DNA of 64,000 bases. It comes from Hamiltosporidium tvaerminnensis. Taxonomy: Eukaryota; Microsporidia; Dubosqiidae. The DNA lies in NCBI GenBank assembly GCA_022605425.2, contig CM061255.1:1-64000 (forward strand), given 5' to 3'. The notes beneath the pieces were generated by a model. That model made no database searches. It was not told the DNA's origin and worked only from the letters and a program-made list of their open reading frames with translations. Numbering within the stretch: position 1 is the stretch's first letter; the number at the start of each line of letters is the position of its first letter. This document shows, one piece after another, positions 3,974-62,610 of this stretch. The translations under genes were made by a program, and so were the position numbers.

Positions 3974-4389
3974 TTTTTTTCGATGACCTGGGACGGTATT
4001 GTGACAAAATACCATAAGACGTATGTTAAGAGACTGCAAATACCCATGAATGTAGAGGCATATATACAATCCATAGTTCTCAAGAAGACAGTCGAAACAA
4101 TTTCTTTTGATCGACGAAGAGGACTTGAGTCTGGTCCAAATGCCGAGGAGAGCTGGGAGAGAGCATCATTAAGTGTTATTTTAGGAGCTGAGGTGCATAA
4201 ACAACCAATACCCCCTTTAAAGCAAGTAGACAACGAGGAAGATGATGTTAAAACGGAAAATACAAAAAATATTTTACCCCTTATTTGGATGGTATAACCA
4301 CAGCAAAGGAACCATCAACTAATACAAATGAAGAGTTTGAGTTCGAGGAAGAAATAGAAGTGGTTAAAATGGTGGAAAGAATTATTTAG
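3974..4389 (+). mobile_element. R2-like non-LTR retrotransposon, C-terminal relic
   Basis: The reading frame opens right after a TAA at 3971-3973. It has an ATG at 3983 and runs 104 codons to a TAA at 4295-4297. Past that stop another frame continues the acidic tail (TTAKEPSTNTNEE...) to a TAG at 4387-4389, so the piece carries a frameshift. The protein has motifs MTWDGIVTKYH, QSIVLKKT and ISFDRRRG. From memory these are typical of the end of the restriction-like endonuclease polyprotein of microsporidian R2-type elements. Two other relics in this window (8464-9700 minus, 63081-63365 plus) align to it or to the segment just before it. Its GC content is well above its flanks. It is 5'-truncated, as is usual for LINE insertions. 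Family assignment is by motif recognition, not a search. Confidence 0.7.
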
Positions 4390-56759: not shown

Positions 56760-57125
56760 AGAATTAGAATAATAAACTGATAGTAATTAGGATATAACTG
56801 ATAGTAAAGTAATTAGTAATTAGTAATTAGTCAGTAATAATAAGTAATATTTATAAAGATATAGTAAAATAAGCAACAAACTTCTACAAAACTAATGCAA
56901 AACTATTACAAAAAGAATACAAAACTATTACAAAAAGAATACAAAATAATACAAAATTAATACAAACTAATACAAAATAATACAAAAAGAATACAAACTA
57001 TTACAAAATAATACAAAATAATACAAAAAGAATACAAAACTATTACAAAAAGAATACAAAATAATACAAAATTAATACAAAAAGAATACAAAACTTCTAC
57101 AAAATAATACAAAAAGAATAATAAA
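56760..57125. repeat. Low-complexity repeat just 3' of UBC7
   Basis: From ~56760 there are TAATTAGTAAT-type repeats, then from ~56880 irregular tandem copies of AATACAAAA and AATACAAAACTATTACAAAA. The array runs right up to the UBC7 stop codon at 57127, so it forms the whole 3' flank of that gene. Confidence 0.8.
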
Positions 57126-57126
57126 T

Positions 57127-57654
57127 TTATTCTTCGATAGACTCTTGTTTCGCTAAATTTCTAACAATACGTTTATATTCTTCAATATTATTATTAAACA
57201 TCTTAGAAGCATCTACATTAGCAGGTGAAGATGTATTAGGTTCATTGAGTAAAGAAACTACAGAATGAACTATTGTTCTTATACCGTGTACAGGTGTCCA
57301 TTTTTCATCTGCTTTCATATATGAAGTAGGGTCATCATCTGCCATATGAAGTATACTGATACAAACCTTTCCATCTGAATAAATATTTGGATGAAACATT
57401 TTAGAAATGAATTTCATTTTAGGAGGTTGTATGGGATATTCAGGGTGAAATTCTATTAAAGCGTGGAGAAGACAACCTTCATATAAAGTATCTTTTTGTC
57501 CTTGTATGTATATATCCCAGTGGCTGTAATCTTTTATATCTTCTTGTTTTCTAGGCATTGCTATGAATCCAAGTGTGTGGAAGTCATTTTTTAGGTTTTT
57601 TTCTTCTGCCATCAGTCTTCTTAAAGCTGTGTCGTTTAGTTTTTTGGATGCCAT
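57127..57654 (-). CDS. UBC7: Ubiquitin-conjugating enzyme E2, UBC7/UBE2G type
   Basis: 175-aa E2. It takes ubiquitin from E1 as a thioester and, with an E3, passes it to substrates. UBC7/UBE2G enzymes serve ER-associated degradation at the cytosolic face of the ER. The UBC fold spans residues ~5-170. The HPN motif is at 88-90 (FHPNIYSDGKVCIS) and the catalytic Cys is C98. After it comes an acidic loop (HMADDDPTSYMKADEKW), present in UBC7/UBE2G and CDC34 but absent from most E2s. The end (VVSLLNEPN, SPANVDASKMF) fits the G subfamily. There is no TM tail, so a membrane partner such as CUE1 would be needed. The length is near the family norm (165-175). The start ATG has CCC motifs just upstream, in a GGG-tract array at 57660-57860. 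Third of three minus-strand core genes. Confidence 0.93.
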   Translation of the reverse strand: MASKKLNDTALRRLMAEEKNLKNDFHTLGFIAMPRKQEDIKDYSHWDIYIQGQKDTLYEGCLLHALIEFHPEYPIQPPKMKFISKMFHPNIYSDGKVCISILHMADDDPTSYMKADEKWTPVHGIRTIVHSVVSLLNEPNTSSPANVDASKMFNNNIEEYKRIVRNLAKQESIEE

Positions 57655-57659
57655 GGGTT

Positions 57660-58175
57660 TTTGTTTGGGAAAGGGTGTTTATAAATAATTAAAGGGATAT
57701 AGGGTGTTAGGGATATAGGGATATAGGGATATAGGGTGTTTATAAATCATTAAAGGGTTAGAATAAGGGATATAGGGTGTTGGGGTGTTAGGGTGTTAGT
57801 AAACAGGTATACAAATAAGAGGGTGTTAGGTAAGAAAAGAAATAGATATATAGGAGAGGTTAAACAATACATTTAATAAATAAAGGGGTGTTAAACAATA
57901 CATTTGATAAATAAAGGGGTGTTACTATTGGTATTTATAAATAAAGGGGTGTTAGTAATAGTATTAATAAATAAAGGGGTGTTAGTAATAGTATAATAAA
58001 TAAAGGGGTATTAAGCAATAATATCATTAAATAAAGGGGTGTTAGTATTACTTAATAAAAAAGGGGTGTTAGTATTAGTATTTATAAATAAAGGGGTGTT
58101 AGTATTAGTATTGATAAATAAAGGGGTGTTGGTAATACACTGGTTGATTAAAGGGGTGTTAATATGAATACTAAT
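57660..58175. repeat. GGGTGTTA-based arrays upstream of UBC7
   Basis: At ~57680-57860 short units GGGATATA and GGGTGTTA alternate. From ~57870 to ~58170 about ten units of TAATAAATAAAGGGGTGTTA, with a variable AGTAATAGTAT spacer, repeat every 27-32 bases. The plus strand carries the G-rich form throughout. The first part is the promoter side of UBC7 and supplies its CCC element on the coding strand. Runs such as GGGATATAGGGATATAGGG could fold as G-quadruplexes. Confidence 0.88.
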
Positions 58176-58375
58176 ACTACTTATAAAAATATGTATTAAT
58201 ACCCTTTATTACCAATAAGTATTAAATACTAAAATAACCCTAATAATACATGTTAATTATAACCTTTAAAAATCTAATAAAATAACCCTTTATTATAACT
58301 AAGCCTATAAGTGTTATTACAACACACTCTTTATAAATAACACTCTTCTATTCCTTATTACTAGTGTTATTTATT

Positions 58376-58700
58376 AGTAGTATGATTAACACCCTGTTAT
58401 TTATTAGTACATGATTAACACCCTGTTATCTACTAGTAATAATACTAACACCCTCTTATCTACTAGTAAATATACTAACACCCTCTACCATATTACCTTT
58501 ATAATAACACCCTTTAACTACACTACCTCCCTTTACTAACACCCCTTTAACTACACTACCTCTCCTTACTAACACCCTTTAACTACACTACCTCCCTTTA
58601 CTAACACCCCTTTAACTACACTACCTCCCTTTACTAACACCCTTTAACTACATACCTCCCTTTACTAACACCCCTTAACTACACTACATTCCTTAATCCT
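58376..58700. repeat. TAACACCC arrays running into the 3' end of GLN4
   Basis: At ~58376-58500 copies of AACACCCTGTTATTTATTAG occur, the same unit that codes for TNKQQGVN repeats inside GLN4. At ~58507-58700 a 33-bp unit (TTTACTAACACCCC, then TTTAACTACACTACCTCCC) repeats about six times. The array overlaps the last codons of GLN4. Sequence inside the gene (CCTCCCTTTACTAACATCAC) matches the unit, suggesting the array grew from the gene's 3' end. Compared with 57660-58175 the G-rich strand has switched, between ~58170 and ~58376. Confidence 0.85.
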
Positions 58701-61144
58701 ACTGTTAAGTTAAACACATACCTCCCTTTACTAACATCACTCTCCTCATCCAAACAGAAATAACCAACCCTCATAAATTGAAACTTATCCTCTATTTTAA
58801 CACCCTTTAAATCCTCTATTCTTATTTTACCTTTAAATATATTTAACCCTCCATTCTCATAATCATACATTCTTATTTCTACTTCTTTATATTCTTCTTC
58901 CTTAACCCAATGGACATACTTCTTAGCCTTACACAGGCACTTCTCAACAACAAGACAGGGGGTGTTATTAGTATATGTGTTAGGGTTAGTGTTAGGGTTA
59001 GTGTTAGGGTTAGGGTTAGGGTTAGTATTACTTATATCCTTAGTATTACTTATATCCTTAGTATTACTAATACTTAGATTACTTATAGTATTACTTATAT
59101 TATCATTATTACTAACACTCCCCTCACTATCCTCACACTCTATCATACCTTTGTATTTTATTGTACAGTAACCATACAATCCCATACACCTGTCCTTAGA
59201 CAATCTATAAAAATTACTTCCTCCTTCTAAATTAAAGTCTTTATTTTCTATGAAACATATTTCTGAGTTAGAGGGTGTTATAGTATAACCAAGAAGGGAA
59301 GAGGCTTTATCATAAAGGGTATTGTTATTAGATAGATTGTTAACAGGGTGTTGTTCTATATGGTTGTTAATAACACCCTGTTGTTTATTAGTACTGTTAT
59401 TAACACCCTTTTGATTATGTATACTGTCTTTAACACCCTGTTGTTTATTAATACTATCATTAACACCCTCTAATTCATTACTCTTATCATTAACACCCTC
59501 CAACCTACTATCACTAACACTCTCCAACCTACTATCACTAACACCCTCCAACCTACTATCATTATCACCCCCCTCTAACACACCCTTATCAACTATCAGT
59601 ACCTTTAACCCTTCTACTACACACATAACCTTCTTACAAATAACACTCAATTCTTCTCTTACAATCCTTTCAAATAATTTCTTATCAATAACAGTATAAG
59701 AGTAAGTAAGACCACACTGTTTAACAAATCTATTAATACTTTCTTTAGTAACACCTCTTCTTCTTAACCCACATATAGTAAATAACCTAGGATCATCCCA
59801 TTTATTATACTTTATACTTAAATCAGTTAATTTTCTTTTACTAAGAATAACACCTTTAATATTTAACCTATTAAATTCCCATTGAAAAGGTTTAAATAAA
59901 TTTAATTCATTTAAAACCCAATAATAGACATTTCTTCTTATAAAGAATTCTCTACTACAAAAACTATGGGTTATATTTTCTATAGAGTCACATATACAAT
60001 GGGTGTAATCATAGGAAGGATATACGTTATATTTATATTTTGTTCTGTAATGACTAACACCCTTTATTATACGGTATGCTACTAAGTCATACATTAAAGG
60101 GTCTGTAGAGTTTAAATCCATTTTTAGTCTTAAACAAGCACTTCCTTCTTTCCATTTACCTTCTATCATTTCCTTAAATAACACCCTATTGGTTTCAATA
60201 GGTCTATCTCTAAAGGGTGAGGGTGTAGGTTTACTAATAGAGGGGTTAGTATTAGGGTTAAGGTTGAGGTTGGGGTTAGTATTAGGGTTAGGGTTAGTAT
60301 TAGGGTTAGGATTAGTAGGGTGTTGTTTGGTAGAATTGGTATTAACACCCTGTTGTTTACTTGATAGATTGTTAACACCCTTATAATTATCAGTACTGTT
60401 ATTAACAGGGTTATAATTACTAGCCTTATCATTAACACCCTGTTGTTTACTTGATAGATTGTTAACACCCTGTTGTTTATTACTACTGTTACTAACAGGG
60501 TTATAATTACCACTACCTATATCACCCTCTAATATATCATTATTACCCTCCACTCCCTCTAATATATCCCTATCATTATCACCCTCTAACATACTATAAC
60601 CTACTCTCCTCCCTTGTCTCATTGTTTCTAAGTCTAAGTGACACACATATGCCTTTCCCTTATCAATAAGCTTAAAAGCATAATCTATAAGAATATCAAA
60701 ATAATCACTAGCATATGTTATTTTAAAAGGTTTAAATCCTAACCATTCTACATCTTTAACAATACTTTTATAAAATTCTTCTTTTTCATTTCTAGGATTC
60801 GTATCATCAAATCTTAAATAAGTAACACCGTTATTTATAAGAGAATATTCAAAACTAAGATTTATTGCTTTTGCATGTCCTAAGTGTAAATAACCGTTGG
60901 GTTCTGGAGGGAATCTTGTTACTGTTAAGGCAGGAGAAGAAGAGAGGTGAGTTGATAGGACAGAAGGGGTGTTTATTGTGTGGTGTATGTTATTAAGCTT
61001 AGAGACTTCACCGATTGAGAGCCAGTTACTGTCAACGTGTGGGTTATGTGGGTTGGATGGATTATGTTTATGTAGGTTGGAGGGATTGTCTCCTAATGGT
61101 TTTTCTCCTATTGGTTTGTCTTTTGTTTTATTTTTGTTTGTCAT
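58679..61144 (-). CDS. GLN4: Glutaminyl-tRNA synthetase with repeat insertions
   Basis: Class I synthetase that charges tRNA-Gln in the cytosol, 821 aa. The catalytic Rossmann domain has FPPEPNGYLHLGHAKA (HIGH motif HLGH at 87-90) and RFDDTNP at 111-117. It resumes at ~310 with YPSYDYTHCICDSIENITHS (376-393) and FNRLNIKGVILSKRKL, where LSKRK (434-438) is the KMSKS equivalent. The anticodon-binding barrels end with KKYVHWV, then RVGYFCLDEESD and FNLTVGLRN, which mark GlnRS rather than GluRS. The N-terminal extension of eukaryotic GlnRS is cut to ~70 polar residues. Three low-complexity insertions interrupt it: ~185-305, ~521-608 and ~675-728. They consist of QQGVNN-, LEGVND- and NPNPNT-type repeats and lie in surface-loop positions, so activity is probably kept. 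The start ATG has ACACCC nine bases upstream. Confidence 0.95.
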   Translation of the reverse strand: MTNKNKTKDKPIGEKPLGDNPSNLHKHNPSNPHNPHVDSNWLSIGEVSKLNNIHHTINTPSVLSTHLSSSPALTVTRFPPEPNGYLHLGHAKAINLSFEYSLINNGVTYLRFDDTNPRNEKEEFYKSIVKDVEWLGFKPFKITYASDYFDILIDYAFKLIDKGKAYVCHLDLETMRQGRRVGYSMLEGDNDRDILEGVEGNNDILEGDIGSGNYNPVSNSSNKQQGVNNLSSKQQGVNDKASNYNPVNNSTDNYKGVNNLSSKQQGVNTNSTKQHPTNPNPNTNPNPNTNPNLNLNPNTNPSISKPTPSPFRDRPIETNRVLFKEMIEGKWKEGSACLRLKMDLNSTDPLMYDLVAYRIIKGVSHYRTKYKYNVYPSYDYTHCICDSIENITHSFCSREFFIRRNVYYWVLNELNLFKPFQWEFNRLNIKGVILSKRKLTDLSIKYNKWDDPRLFTICGLRRRGVTKESINRFVKQCGLTYSYTVIDKKLFERIVREELSVICKKVMCVVEGLKVLIVDKGVLEGGDNDSRLEGVSDSRLESVSDSRLEGVNDKSNELEGVNDSINKQQGVKDSIHNQKGVNNSTNKQQGVINNHIEQHPVNNLSNNNTLYDKASSLLGYTITPSNSEICFIENKDFNLEGGSNFYRLSKDRCMGLYGYCTIKYKGMIECEDSEGSVSNNDNISNTISNLSISNTKDISNTKDISNTNPNPNPNTNPNTNPNTYTNNTPCLVVEKCLCKAKKYVHWVKEEEYKEVEIRMYDYENGGLNIFKGKIRIEDLKGVKIEDKFQFMRVGYFCLDEESDVSKGRYVFNLTVGLRNVV
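58961..59122 (-). repeat. Coding repeat insertion 3 of GLN4, with telomere-like units
   Basis: In-frame insertion of ~54 codons. The plus strand at ~58977-59030 reads GTTAGGGTTAGTGTTAGGG and then three consecutive GGGTTA units, translated on the coding strand as NPNPNPNT and NPNT repeats. The neighbouring 18-bp unit TTACTTATATCCTTAGTA gives DISNTK repeats. Confidence 0.85.
59321..59584 (-). repeat. Coding repeat insertion 2 of GLN4
   Basis: In-frame insertion of ~88 codons. The first part is tandem SDSRLEGV units (27-30 bp, plus-strand CCAACCTACTATCACTAACA). The second part is NKQQGVND-like units of 30-36 bp built on AACACCCTGTTGTTTATTAG. The change from one unit type to the next is abrupt, suggesting repeated local duplications. 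Confidence 0.85.
60230..60592 (-). repeat. Coding repeat insertion 1 of GLN4, with telomere-like units
   Basis: In-frame insertion of ~120 codons between the catalytic fold halves. Its DNA consists of TAACACCCTG units (QQGVN on the coding strand) and, at ~60236-60316 on the plus strand, TTAGGG-type repeats with single-base variants (GGGTTAGTATTAGGGTTAGG). The latter are translated as Asn-Pro, Asn-Thr and Asn-Leu pairs. Confidence 0.85.
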
Positions 61145-61442
61145 TTCTTAGGGTGTCTTGTATCTAAGAAATAAGAAGGAAATGATAAGAAGGAAATGAT
61201 AAGAAGGAAGAGATAAGATAGAAGAGAGAGGAAGGGAGAGATAGGTATATTAGTTAACACCCTTTAATTATCTGTATTGTTATTTTCACCCTTTAATTAT
61301 ATGTATTGTTATTAACACCCTTTAATCATACTACTTATATTTAACACCTTTTAATCATACTACTTATATTTAACACCCTTTTAATTAATATATCTATATA
61401 CTTCCACCCTTTACAGCAGTACTCCAGTATACTAACACCCCC
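61145..61442. repeat. Spacer between DMC1 and GLN4 with short arrays
   Basis: Next to the GLN4 start, AAGAAGGAAATGATA is repeated three times (~61170-61220). From ~61255 to ~61400, four or five units of AACACCCTTTAATTAT or AACACCCTTTAATCATACTA recur every ~30 bases. The GLN4 promoter must lie in this 300-base stretch; the CCC element is the ACACCC just before the ATG. Confidence 0.75.
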
Positions 61443-61620
61443 TTCTATTACATCTATACCCTTATAACCATAACCACTATATCTAACACCCCTTTATCTC
61501 ACTCTACTGCATTATCAATTCCCCCTATTGTTACATCCATACCCCTATAACCCTAACCACTATATCTAACACCCCTTTATCTCACTCTACTGCATTATCT
61601 ATTCCCCCTACTGTTATAGC
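61443..61620. repeat. 83-bp tandem duplication including the 3' end of DMC1
   Basis: The landmark CTCACTCTACTGCATTAT occurs at 61498 and 61581, 83 bases apart. The inner copy carries the last codons and the stop of DMC1 (GGIDNAVE). The outer copy, entirely in the spacer, still encodes the same GGIDNAVE plus stop. Flanking TAACACCCCTTTAT is shared by both. So the end of the gene was copied downstream. Confidence 0.9.
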
Positions 61621-62610
61621 ATAAACAGCCTCTGCCTCAGGAACATCAGGTGAGTCATAAATCTTTGCTACTCTTGTCTCTCCTCTTCCTTTTCTTAAAT
61701 AAATCCTTGTTGTACTAGCATGTGCTAAGACATGACCACCTATTGGTTTCTTAGGATCTGCAACAAAAGAAAGGGTGGCTGAAGGATCTGCCATCATCTG
61801 GTTGGTAATAAAAACCGCCAAATTATATTCTTCACTGATACGTAGAAGTCTACTTAAAAAAGTATTTAATTTCTGTTGTCTTTCTCCCAACTCTCCTCTT
61901 CCAACAAAATCTGTTCTAAACAAAGAAATTACAGAATCTACGATCAATAGTTTGAATTTGTTTGGTTCTTCAATAAATTTATTTGTCAAATGTATCAATA
62001 AATCATTTTGATGTTCTGAGTTGTGTGCTCGTGCATAAATTACATTTTCCAAGGCTTGTTCTGGGTTTAAATCGTATCTAATTGCTATTTCTTTAAGTCT
62101 TTCTGGTCTGAAAGTTCCTTCTGTGTCTATGAATGCAGCTTTGTATGTGGAATTGAGTAGTTGTACGGTTACACAGAGTGTGTGAGAAAGTTGTGTTTTT
62201 CCTGTTCTAAATTCTCCAAATACTTCTGTTATAGCCATAGTTTGTATACCGCCGTTTAAAAGGGTGTCAAAATCTGACGATCCGGTGGATATTTTAAGGA
62301 CTTGTTCTCTTCGACAGTTAAATTGAGAGGCTGTCATAAATGAGGTGGTAGGTGTTAAAGAAGAGTCAAAGAATTTATGGACCGCTTCTTTCATTTTATC
62401 TACTTTTGTTTCACTCATACCTTTGATTTTTATAAGATTACGACGAGTGTGCATTGTTAGTCCTTTCAGTGTACAGATGCCTGCTTGTTTTAGTTTAAGG
62501 ATGTCTTGACTTGCAATACCAAAGTTTGACAGGTCATCGATTGGGTGTAAGGTTTCTTCTTCTGAGTCTTTCATCTGCTCTGAAAGAATTGTTTGTTCTG
62601 TTTCAATCAT
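61582..62610 (-). CDS. DMC1: DMC1-type meiotic strand-exchange recombinase
   Basis: 342-aa RecA/RAD51-family ATPase. It forms filaments on single-stranded DNA and pairs it with the homologous chromosome. Residues ~24-80 hold the helix-hairpin-helix N-domain (GICTLKG, KIKGMSETKV). The ATPase core has Walker A GEFRTGKT (132-139), catalytic Glu in DTEGTF (E164) and Walker B LLIVD (221-225). Loop L2 follows QMMADPSATLSFVADPK. SHTLCVTVQL after Walker A and PIGGHVLAHASTTRIYLRK favour DMC1 over RAD51, which has CHTLAVTCQL and GGNIIAHAS. Length is that of the family (335-345) and all catalytic residues are present. DMC1 works only in meiosis, so the organism probably has or recently had a sexual cycle. 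No CCC lies close to the ATG, unlike its neighbours. RAD51 is the alternative. Confidence 0.93.
   Translation of the reverse strand: MIETEQTILSEQMKDSEEETLHPIDDLSNFGIASQDILKLKQAGICTLKGLTMHTRRNLIKIKGMSETKVDKMKEAVHKFFDSSLTPTTSFMTASQFNCRREQVLKISTGSSDFDTLLNGGIQTMAITEVFGEFRTGKTQLSHTLCVTVQLLNSTYKAAFIDTEGTFRPERLKEIAIRYDLNPEQALENVIYARAHNSEHQNDLLIHLTNKFIEEPNKFKLLIVDSVISLFRTDFVGRGELGERQQKLNTFLSRLLRISEEYNLAVFITNQMMADPSATLSFVADPKKPIGGHVLAHASTTRIYLRKGRGETRVAKIYDSPDVPEAEAVYAITVGGIDNAVE

What the first reader, a model, noticed from the sequence alone, without database searches (positions are those of the whole stretch)
57660..61620. One G-rich repeat family occupies promoters, spacers and coding sequence
Units built on GGGTGTTA/TAACACCC fill the spacers around UBC7, GLN4 and DMC1. 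The same 20-base unit AACACCCTGTTATTTATTAG seen in the spacer at ~58390 recurs, with one base changed, inside GLN4, where it encodes KQQGVN. The CCC element before several starts (GLN4 ACACCC, UBC7 AAACACCC) is the same core. This suggests a self-spreading short repeat that either carries a promoter-like motif or originated from one, and that is tolerated inside an essential enzyme.
Basis: partly seen in the sequence, partly recalled or inferred. Interest (0 to 1): 0.8.

Follow-up and report, generated by a model that had tools for sequence, protein, structure and literature searches.

The report
Head-to-head minisatellite invading genes and spacers
In a water-flea parasite with a large microsporidian genome, one short G-rich repeat occupies both the spacers and the protein-coding parts of some essential genes, mostly as a G-rich half followed by a C-rich half, and inside genes it is kept readable as what look like floppy extra loops.

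Summary
The genome (inferred: the near-chromosome assembly of Hamiltosporidium tvaerminnensis) has 6178 GGGTGTTA sites against 275 for the backward control. All 43 window copies start at 57,702-61,567. The 20-base unit recurs 220 times (at most 1 mismatch; control 0). The base that separates the spacer copy from the GLN4 copy removes an in-frame stop (TAA to CAA).

Two things go beyond the finding. Arrays have a preferred polarity, GGGTGTTA units first and TAACACCC units after, in spacers and genes (genome-wide close pairs 142 G-then-C, 48 C-then-G). Copies in ORFs are held to one frame (155 of 168 read Gly-Val-x), with unit spacing in multiples of three. They build three predicted disordered loops of GLN4 and insertions in PRP8, a Ski2-like helicase, histone deacetylase and CPSF. 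Repeat hits were Hamiltosporidium only. In one well-aligned H. magnivora orthologue the sites are shared and unit number differs.

The promoter link fails: CCC precedes 14 of 15 starts, AACACCC only 1. Best reading: a genus-specific head-to-head minisatellite family, probably seeded during break repair (inferred) and trimmed by selection on frame. A new variant of a known kind; current spreading is not shown.

The parts
57673..58161 (+). G-half of the UBC7-GLN4 spacer array: GGGTGTT units, many about 30 bp apart, with in-frame stops (non-coding)
   Evidence: All 25 GGG runs of the spacer lie at 57655-58153, before the 17 CCC runs; sequence read
58387..58678 (-). C-half of the same spacer array: TAACACCC units 29-33 bp apart; includes the 20-base unit at 58388-58407
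   Evidence: spacer single strand folds as a long hairpin, z -7.8 against 20 shuffles
58679..61144 (-). GLN4, glutaminyl-tRNA synthetase, 821 aa, carrying three repeat-built insertions
   Evidence: PF00749 303.9 bits; best PDB match 4ye8, glutamine--tRNA ligase, E 6.6e-103
60230..60595 (-). GLN4 insertion 1 (about residues 184-305), between the two halves of the catalytic domain; GVN, NPVN and HPTN units plus NPNPN tract
   Evidence: units absent from the 9 aligned relatives; P0004, P0007, P0009 have unrelated inserts at this place; pLDDT below 50 over 191-300
59279..59587 (-). GLN4 insertion 2 (about residues 520-622); LEGVSDSR and NSTNKQQGVN units; holds the one-base variant of the 20-mer at 59372-59391
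   Evidence: P0004, P0007, P0009 have unrelated inserts here too; pLDDT below 50 over 527-603
58955..59155 (-). GLN4 insertion 3 (about residues 664-730); DISNTK and NPNPNT tracts, telomere-like TTAGGG on the + strand, one GGGTGTTA core
   Evidence: P0011 (Edhazardia) has an unrelated insert at this place; pLDDT below 50 over 675-724
61145..61581 (.). GLN4-DMC1 spacer: purine-rich left part, then TAACACCC units at 61255-61574
   Evidence: G minus C per eighth: 11, 19, -5, -11, -13, -15, -18, -21, -1
57127..57654 (-). UBC7-like ubiquitin-conjugating enzyme, no insertion; AACACCC upstream, its CCC 21 bp before the ATG
61582..62610 (-). DMC1-like recombinase, no insertion, no CCC within 40 bp of its ATG

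Best explanation
GGGTGTTA marks a genus-specific, dispersed minisatellite family with a unit of about 27-33 bp, a nearly fixed 8-bp core and a looser RTA-rich filler. Arrays are typically two tandem blocks joined head to head: core-as-GGG units first, core-as-CCC units after, read 5' to 3' on either strand. They cluster in short islands around genes (seen in the window and the sampled loci; not mapped genome-wide) and gain or lose units. Shown: abundance, shared unit in spacers and genes, preferred polarity, single reading frame and stop avoidance in genes, predicted disorder of the GLN4 loops. Inferred: new sites are seeded when breaks are repaired by copying repeat DNA into the junction, the two sides of the break receiving copies in mirrored orientation, and tandem growth follows by slippage or unequal exchange. 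Inside genes mainly arrays that stay in frame and sit in permissive loops survive, so the repeat is tolerated rather than useful.
For: Abundance: 6178 vs 275 control; same-strand pairs with a 10-40 bp gap 3115 vs 0 control. Same unit in both settings: in exactly 30-bp units the coding (32 units) and spacer (20 units) consensus agree at 24 of 30 positions; spacer filler matches the coding consensus at 14.2 of 22 against 8.1 when shuffled, coding filler the spacer consensus at 12.3 against 7.9 (18 of the 20 spacer units come from the window and L019). Polarity: G..C pairs 57 vs C..G 19 at gaps 10-40 and 85 vs 29 at gaps 41-71; in 34 non-redundant proteins 90 of 102 clusters begin with a G-type unit, transitions GC 86 vs CG 36. 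Frame: 155 of 168 copies in ORFs, arrays and isolated cores together, read GVx (an earlier subset 82 of 88); spacing is a multiple of 3 in 67 of 69 coding pairs vs 31 of 68 non-coding. Stop avoidance: where TAACACCC would put TAA in frame, the T is C in 35 of 37 and A in 2; T is kept in 22 of 26 copies in the other coding frames and 100 of 106 non-coding. DNA-level identity: 98 of 100 listed QQGVN codings keep GGGTGTTA (264 in all); Gly-Val is GGTGTT in 98 of 124 against 18.5% expected. Unit turnover with fixed sites: P0126 vs P0125. Loops: pLDDT below 50 at 191-300, 527-603, 675-724 of GLN4 (also 1-37), mostly 75-98 in the core.
Against: No insertion site was found that one species has and the other lacks, so seeding was not observed (one good pair and two short overlaps). 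The break-repair step has no direct footprint (no target duplication or donor identified). The polarity is explained only if repair adds the same strand on both sides, which is assumed; it also has exceptions: 48 of 190 close pairs are C-then-G, 12 of 102 protein clusters begin with a C-type unit and 40 of 102 end in a G-type unit, and GLN4 insertion 1 has two GGG runs (60408, 60498) among its CCC runs. Some genes with arrays are split over frames in this assembly, each switch, by eye, within an array or low-complexity tract (PRP8 in L026, L040, L041), which could mean real breakage. ThrRS, which PMC2784321 lists as carrying an insertion, has no such repeat. Single cores also sit in host coding sequence outside arrays (L036, L038), which an array-insertion model alone does not explain.
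Confidence: 0.6

Rival explanations
1. The core is a functional DNA-protein binding site (for example for a Myb/TRF-like or recombination factor), and selection on binding keeps the octamer while the filler drifts.
For: The core is far more conserved than the filler in coding and non-coding arrays; period near 30 bp; isolated cores occur in host coding sequence without any array (three in L036, five in L038; others); the genus encodes at least one Myb-domain protein, itself with arrays (P0158).
Against: The core-over-filler contrast was measured on sites picked by the core, so it is partly built in. None of 9 CCT gene copies nor ThrRS has an array in its ORF, and 6 of these 10 loci have no core at all in the stretch fetched, so there is no general need. 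No binding protein identified.
Confidence: 0.2
2. The arrays are remains of a foldback or MITE-like transposon whose terminal inverted repeats are themselves tandem units.
For: Head-to-head layout; inverted arms of 139 nt at up to 78% complementarity in L019 and 101 nt at 73% in the spacer; the spacer strand folds far better than shuffles, z -7.8 (20 shuffles); two of the listed G..C pairs, on C7 and C14, share their centre.
Against: Apart from those two, the sequence between the innermost cores differs by eye among the listed G..C pairs; no defined ends or target duplication seen; GLN4 insert 2 does not fold better than shuffles, z -0.31.
Confidence: 0.15
3. One reading: the repeat originated from, or carries, the CCC-type promoter element and spread from starts.
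For: The C-strand unit ACACCCTTTAA resembles promoters such as tttACCCTTAAA-ATG; UBC7 has AACACCC with its CCC 21 bp before its start.
Against: CCC occurs before 12 of 12 gene copies outside the window, but AACACCC before none. The CCC signal is described in five microsporidian species (PMC2803860), whereas repeat-containing protein hits were Hamiltosporidium only.
Confidence: 0.08
4. Arrays in genes are removed from the message or skipped by the ribosome, so they need not be translated.
For: Conserved segments of PRP8 (L026), and of the genes in L040 and L041, lie in different frames, each switch by eye inside an array or low-complexity tract.
Against: Frame and stop-avoidance constraints in the arrays themselves; a 1637-aa helicase frame stays open through its arrays; RT-PCR of insertions in this species showed no removal (PMC2784321, passage read; data not shown there, and which of those insertions hold this repeat is unknown). 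Assembly indels in repeats are the simpler cause.
Confidence: 0.05

Closest known systems
Core-sharing minisatellites (Jeffreys type, recalled)
   Same: Short conserved core within longer, more variable tandem units at many loci; length change by units
   Different: Here the arrays are mostly head-to-head with a preferred polarity and sit in both spacers and conserved coding sequence
Large in-frame amino-acid insertions of Octosporea bayeri (= H. tvaerminnensis), PMC2784321
   Same: Species-specific in-frame insertions in conserved enzymes, present in mRNA
   Different: The passages read do not connect them to a repeat family; ThrRS, one of its examples, has no GGGTGTT or AACACCC, so at most part of those insertions belong here
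Rickettsia palindromic elements (recalled)
   Same: A short DNA repeat found both between genes and in frame inside unrelated essential genes
   Different: RPEs are single palindromic elements of about 100-150 bp; here tandem 30-bp units in two mirrored blocks
Candida glabrata megasatellites (recalled)
   Same: Tandem motifs that recur in frame in several genes of one fungus
   Different: Those units are longer and gene-bound, mostly in cell-wall genes; here essential intracellular enzymes and spacers share the unit
Interstitial telomeric sequences inserted at double-strand breaks (PMC8537989, start of abstract seen in a listing)
   Same: G-rich repeats inside chromosomes; the head-to-head polarity equals that of two fused telomeres (recalled)
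   Different: Core is GGGTGTTA, not the TTAGGG of this genome's telomeres; telomere-bearing contig starts hold no GGGTGTTA excess; TTAGGG near cores is not special among same-letter hexamers
Microsporidian CCC-like transcription signal (PMC2803860, passages)
   Same: CCC shortly before the start codon
   Different: Present without the TAACA part of the repeat core

Membership tests
Minisatellite family | Head-to-tail units of about 10-60 bp | tested here: met
   3115 same-strand core pairs with a 10-40 bp gap, control 0; local spacing mostly 27-33 bp
Minisatellite family | Unit number varies between relatives | tested here: met
   P0126 (H. tvaerminnensis) vs P0125 (H. magnivora): same sites in the overlap, gaps of 17 + 11 and 12 residues inside arrays, about one to three units (one pair)
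Dispersed repeat shared by spacers and genes | Same unit in non-coding and coding arrays | tested here: met
   24 of 30 consensus positions identical; filler above shuffled; 20-mer in spacer and GLN4
Foldback/MITE element | Inverted terminal repeats | tested here: met
   inverted arms in the three non-coding arrays examined; in L038 the longest is 37 nt
Foldback/MITE element | Common centre or ends and target-site duplication | tested here: inconclusive
   centres listed differ by eye except one pair (C7, C14) that matches; ends and duplications not tested systematically
Telomeric or interstitial telomeric repeat | Unit is the telomere repeat of the species | tested here: not met
   telomeres are (TTAGGG)n; of 11 contig starts that begin with telomere repeat, 10 hold 0 or 1 core in 10 kb; L019 holds 22, all beyond 4.4 kb
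CCC-like promoter element | Core found at starts of genes in general | tested here: not met
   AACACCC before 1 of 15 starts, ACACCC before 3, CCC before 14 of 15
Self-spreading element | Insertion present in one relative and absent at the same site in another | tested here: inconclusive
   units absent from 9 other GlnRS, but no presence/absence difference within the genus in the one good pair
Spliced intron or bypassed element | Array absent from mRNA or protein | not testable with these tools
   no transcript or peptide data held; frame constraint argues against

The most novel reading that the evidence does not exclude
Arrays are scars of a repair reaction that extends both 3' ends of a double-strand break with the same G-rich strand before joining them. 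This would explain why arrays read G-rich then C-rich on both strands, in spacers and in genes, and why the two halves are diverged rather than exact mirror copies. The genome would then carry a record of a telomerase-like end-addition activity with its own, non-telomeric repeat, working inside genes.
Probability: 0.13. Interest if true: 0.85.

Novelty: new variant of a known kind. Interest (0 to 1): 0.6.

Why it matters
It gives one concrete DNA source for many of the extra loops in proteins of a large-genome microsporidium, a group otherwise known for stripped-down genomes. It offers a natural test of how much foreign sequence core enzymes (GlnRS, PRP8, histone deacetylase) tolerate and how selection on frame edits a repeat. 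The preferred polarity makes the origin question testable: it predicts a specific strand-biased insertion event that can be looked for in population long reads.

Tried and rejected
Telomere origin: rejected as a simple account. The unit is not the telomere repeat, telomere-bearing contig starts hold no excess, and although 26 TTAGGG near cores share the core's polarity against 4 opposite, several other hexamers of the same letters do so as strongly, so this looks like plain strand skew.

Promoter origin: see rival 3; judged from 15 starts.

RNA hairpin in the message: GLN4 insert 2 does not fold better than shuffles (z -0.31, 100 shuffles); the spacer does (z -7.8, only 20 shuffles), which restates its mirrored layout, because the shuffles do not keep G and C apart.

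Regional GC effect: G+C of the host codons of array-bearing genes is not raised (GLN4 0.301 and helicase 0.247 outside arrays; seven array-free CCT copies 0.301-0.348).

All Octosporea insertions are this repeat: refuted by ThrRS.

CCT genes as an example of an array-bearing gene: withdrawn on recheck. The CCT copy in L038 has low-complexity insertions and five isolated cores, not unit arrays, in its ORF; L036 has three isolated cores; the other seven copies have none in the ORF.

Literature: searches listed no paper whose title or abstract start describes this repeat; the library holds open-licence papers only, and 37 papers hold the words Hamiltosporidium and genome, of which 20 were listed. 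PMC10542269: parts 1 and 2 of 5 of the text read. PMC2784321, PMC2803860, PMC12449221: passages found by term. PMC8537989: abstract start in a listing only.

Limits: the sample of genome letters is not random (contig starts, dense places, CCT and ThrRS loci, two chosen islands). Position lists from genome searches show only the first 100 rows; counts are given as whole, but the tool warns that counts of repeats are lower bounds. Coding segments were chosen by hand, with the frame of fewest stops, and two of the 12 hold stops (1 and 6), the latter because it spans a frame switch. The ORF criterion itself excludes in-frame stops, so the stop-avoidance figure shows adaptation only together with the retained T in other frames. 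Array boundaries were chosen by me. In the protein set many entries are partial; 7 of the 12 clusters that begin with a C-type unit start within 9 residues of the beginning of the listed sequence. Frame-switch positions, missing GVN units in relatives and differing array centres were judged by eye.

Full report
Where this is. The window is the first 64 kb of contig C10 of a 17-contig, 21,638,905-bp genome. A 17-contig, 21.64-Mb assembly is published for Hamiltosporidium tvaerminnensis (PMC10542269), and proteins named as that species lie on contigs of exactly 1,839,609 and 1,973,229 bp, the lengths of C2 and C1. The identity is an inference from these matches. It is a microsporidian parasite of Daphnia magna (PMC10542269).

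The observation. All 43 copies of GGGTGTTA in the window fall in 57,702-61,574; shuffles of that stretch give 0.37 on average. The genome holds 6178 copies, the backward pattern 275. Same-strand pairs with a 10-40 bp gap number 3115, control 0. The 20-base unit with at most one mismatch occurs 220 times, control 0; the 49 exact copies lie on 15 of 17 contigs.

The one-base change. In the GLN4 frame the spacer version reads AAA TAA CAG (Lys-stop-Gln), and the coding version AAA CAA CAG (Lys-Gln-Gln). Of the 49 exact copies 48 carry the coding version; the only A version is the one in this spacer. The same logic holds for the mirrored unit. Where TAACACCC would place TAA in frame, the T is replaced in 37 of 37 copies (35 C, 2 A). 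It is kept in 22 of 26 copies in the other coding frames and in 100 of 106 non-coding copies. Because the segments were chosen as open frames, the replacement is partly by construction; the contrast with the other frames is the informative part. Genome-wide CAACACCC is found 914 times, control 98.

Copies in ORFs obey a frame. In the ORFs sampled, 155 of 168 sense copies read Gly-Val-x (a first subset gave 82 of 88); this includes a few isolated cores. Distances between neighbouring cores are multiples of three in 67 of 69 coding pairs and 31 of 68 non-coding pairs. In 34 non-redundant proteins out of 44, neighbouring units within clusters are 9 or 10 residues apart in 506 of 707 cases. The DNA itself is conserved beyond the protein: among 100 listed codings of Gln-Gln-Gly-Val-Asn 98 keep GGGTGTTA (264 in all, control 0). 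Gly-Val is GGTGTT in 98 of 124 pairs, against 18.5% expected from codon use in the same 17 coding stretches.

Spacer and gene units are one family. Consensus of exactly 30-bp units agrees at 24 of 30 positions between 32 coding and 20 spacer units, and filler similarity exceeds shuffled filler in both directions. Of the 20 spacer units 18 come from two places, this window and L019.

Polarity. In the UBC7-GLN4 spacer 25 GGG runs (57,655-58,153) all precede 17 CCC runs (58,202-58,671). The GLN4-DMC1 spacer and the three GLN4 insertions also go from G-rich to C-rich on the + strand, hence on both strands, though insertion 1 has two GGG runs within its C-rich half. Genome-wide, G-then-C close pairs outnumber C-then-G 57 to 19 (gap 10-40) and 85 to 29 (gap 41-71). 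Taken as independent, which they are not, that is p about 5.5e-12. In local DNA the transitions within clusters are 12 to 4. In proteins 90 of 102 clusters begin with the G-type unit and transitions are 86 to 36, while 62 of 102 end in a C-type unit and 40 in a G-type unit. Seven of the 12 exceptions begin within 9 residues of the start of the listed sequence, and many of these entries are partial. Some listed C-then-G pairs enclose host coding sequence between two arrays (for example C3:248160, seen in L040).

What is hit. Pfam or PDB matches identify array-bearing Hamiltosporidium proteins as GlnRS, PRP8 (PROCN, RRM_4 and snRNA-binding domains), an SLH1/BRR2-like Ski2 helicase, histone deacetylase, a ubiquitin-activating enzyme, queuine tRNA-ribosyltransferase (degenerate units), a dynein-type motor, a SNF2 protein, a VPS13-type and an ATR-like protein; a CPSF subunit is so named by the source. 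Other genes are free of arrays: none of 9 CCT gene copies (8 subunits) nor ThrRS has one in its ORF. Two CCT copies hold isolated cores: three in L036, five in L038. L038 also has unrelated low-complexity insertions and lies beside a 20-unit G-then-C array.

Relatives. The two repeat-based protein searches listed Hamiltosporidium proteins only, 16 of 16 at E up to 1 and 32 of 32 at E up to 10. The nine aligned GlnRS relatives lack the units; three (P0004, P0007, P0009) have unrelated insertions at two of the same sites and P0011 at the third, which marks the sites as permissive. Between H. tvaerminnensis P0126 and H. magnivora P0125 the host sequence is nearly identical, insertion sites are shared over the overlap and unit number differs.

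Structure. In the AlphaFold2 model of GLN4 (48 sequences, mean pLDDT 70.4, pTM 0.69) residues 191-300, 527-603 and 675-724 have pLDDT below 50 and almost no regular structure (one short helix, 192-199). Residues 1-37 are also below 50. The catalytic and anticodon-binding core is mostly 75-98. The insertions are thus predicted loops on an intact enzyme fold.

Promoters. Within 40 bp of the ATG, CCC occurs in 14 of 15 gene copies, AACACCC in one (UBC7) and ACACCC in three (UBC7, GLN4, the L038 CCT). The CCC signal is a known microsporidian feature (PMC2803860, passages). The repeat's C-strand unit resembles it only in CCC(T)TT.

Mechanism. Shown: abundance, common unit, preferred polarity, frame and stop constraints, unit turnover in one pair, predicted disorder. 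Inferred: seeding by break repair, growth by slippage or unequal exchange. The rivals are a selected binding site (helped by the isolated cores), a foldback-like transposon, promoter origin, and removal or bypass. None is excluded outright except the strong form of the promoter origin. The bold reading, G-strand extension of both ends of a break, fits the polarity best but has no direct evidence.

A caution. PRP8 in L026, and the genes in L040 and L041, have conserved segments in different frames, the switches lying, by eye, in arrays or low-complexity stretches. Assembly indels are likely, but real breakage or recoding cannot be excluded here.

Noticed in passing
L026 2176-10000; L040 2338-2754; L041 1901-2096: Conserved segments of single genes (PRP8 in L026) lie in different reading frames; by eye each of about seven switches falls inside a repeat array or low-complexity stretch.
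   Followed up: partly
L036 1270-1363 and L038 2080-3491: Isolated GGGTGTT/AACACCC cores inside CCT coding sequence without arrays (three and five), mostly in frames GVx, HP or TP.
   Followed up: partly
L027 3642-8555, L040 about 700-900, P0125: A second coding repeat family, NPTLTLDTCINN / NPNPNKCIN, recurs in the same array-bearing genes.
   Followed up: no
L033 and L034 (C14:1303049+ and C14:1279162-): Two nearly identical copies of one CCT subunit gene (3 differences in 562 positions) about 24 kb apart in opposite orientation.
   Followed up: partly
C7:90685-90727 and C14:369273-369315: Two G..C core pairs on different contigs share the sequence between the cores, unlike the other pairs listed.
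   Followed up: no
window 56880-57110: A run of ATTACAAAAAGAATACAAA-type repeats just downstream of UBC7, unrelated to the G-rich unit.
   Followed up: no
window 3983-4297 and L034 596-1198: ORFs sharing MTWDGIVTKYHK and IPMNVEAYIQSIVLKKTVETI, perhaps the end of a dispersed retroelement protein (not tested).
   Followed up: no
L039 (ThrRS): A stretch around SVNGGDSVSKEVDDANNCGELNGQSDFSNCHNN without repeat units, possibly the insertion reported for this gene in PMC2784321 (position there not seen).
   Followed up: partly
C2:1476953, C3:248160, C1:856705: Single cores inside host coding sequence in other frames (KGCY, NRVL, LTPF) near array edges.
   Followed up: no
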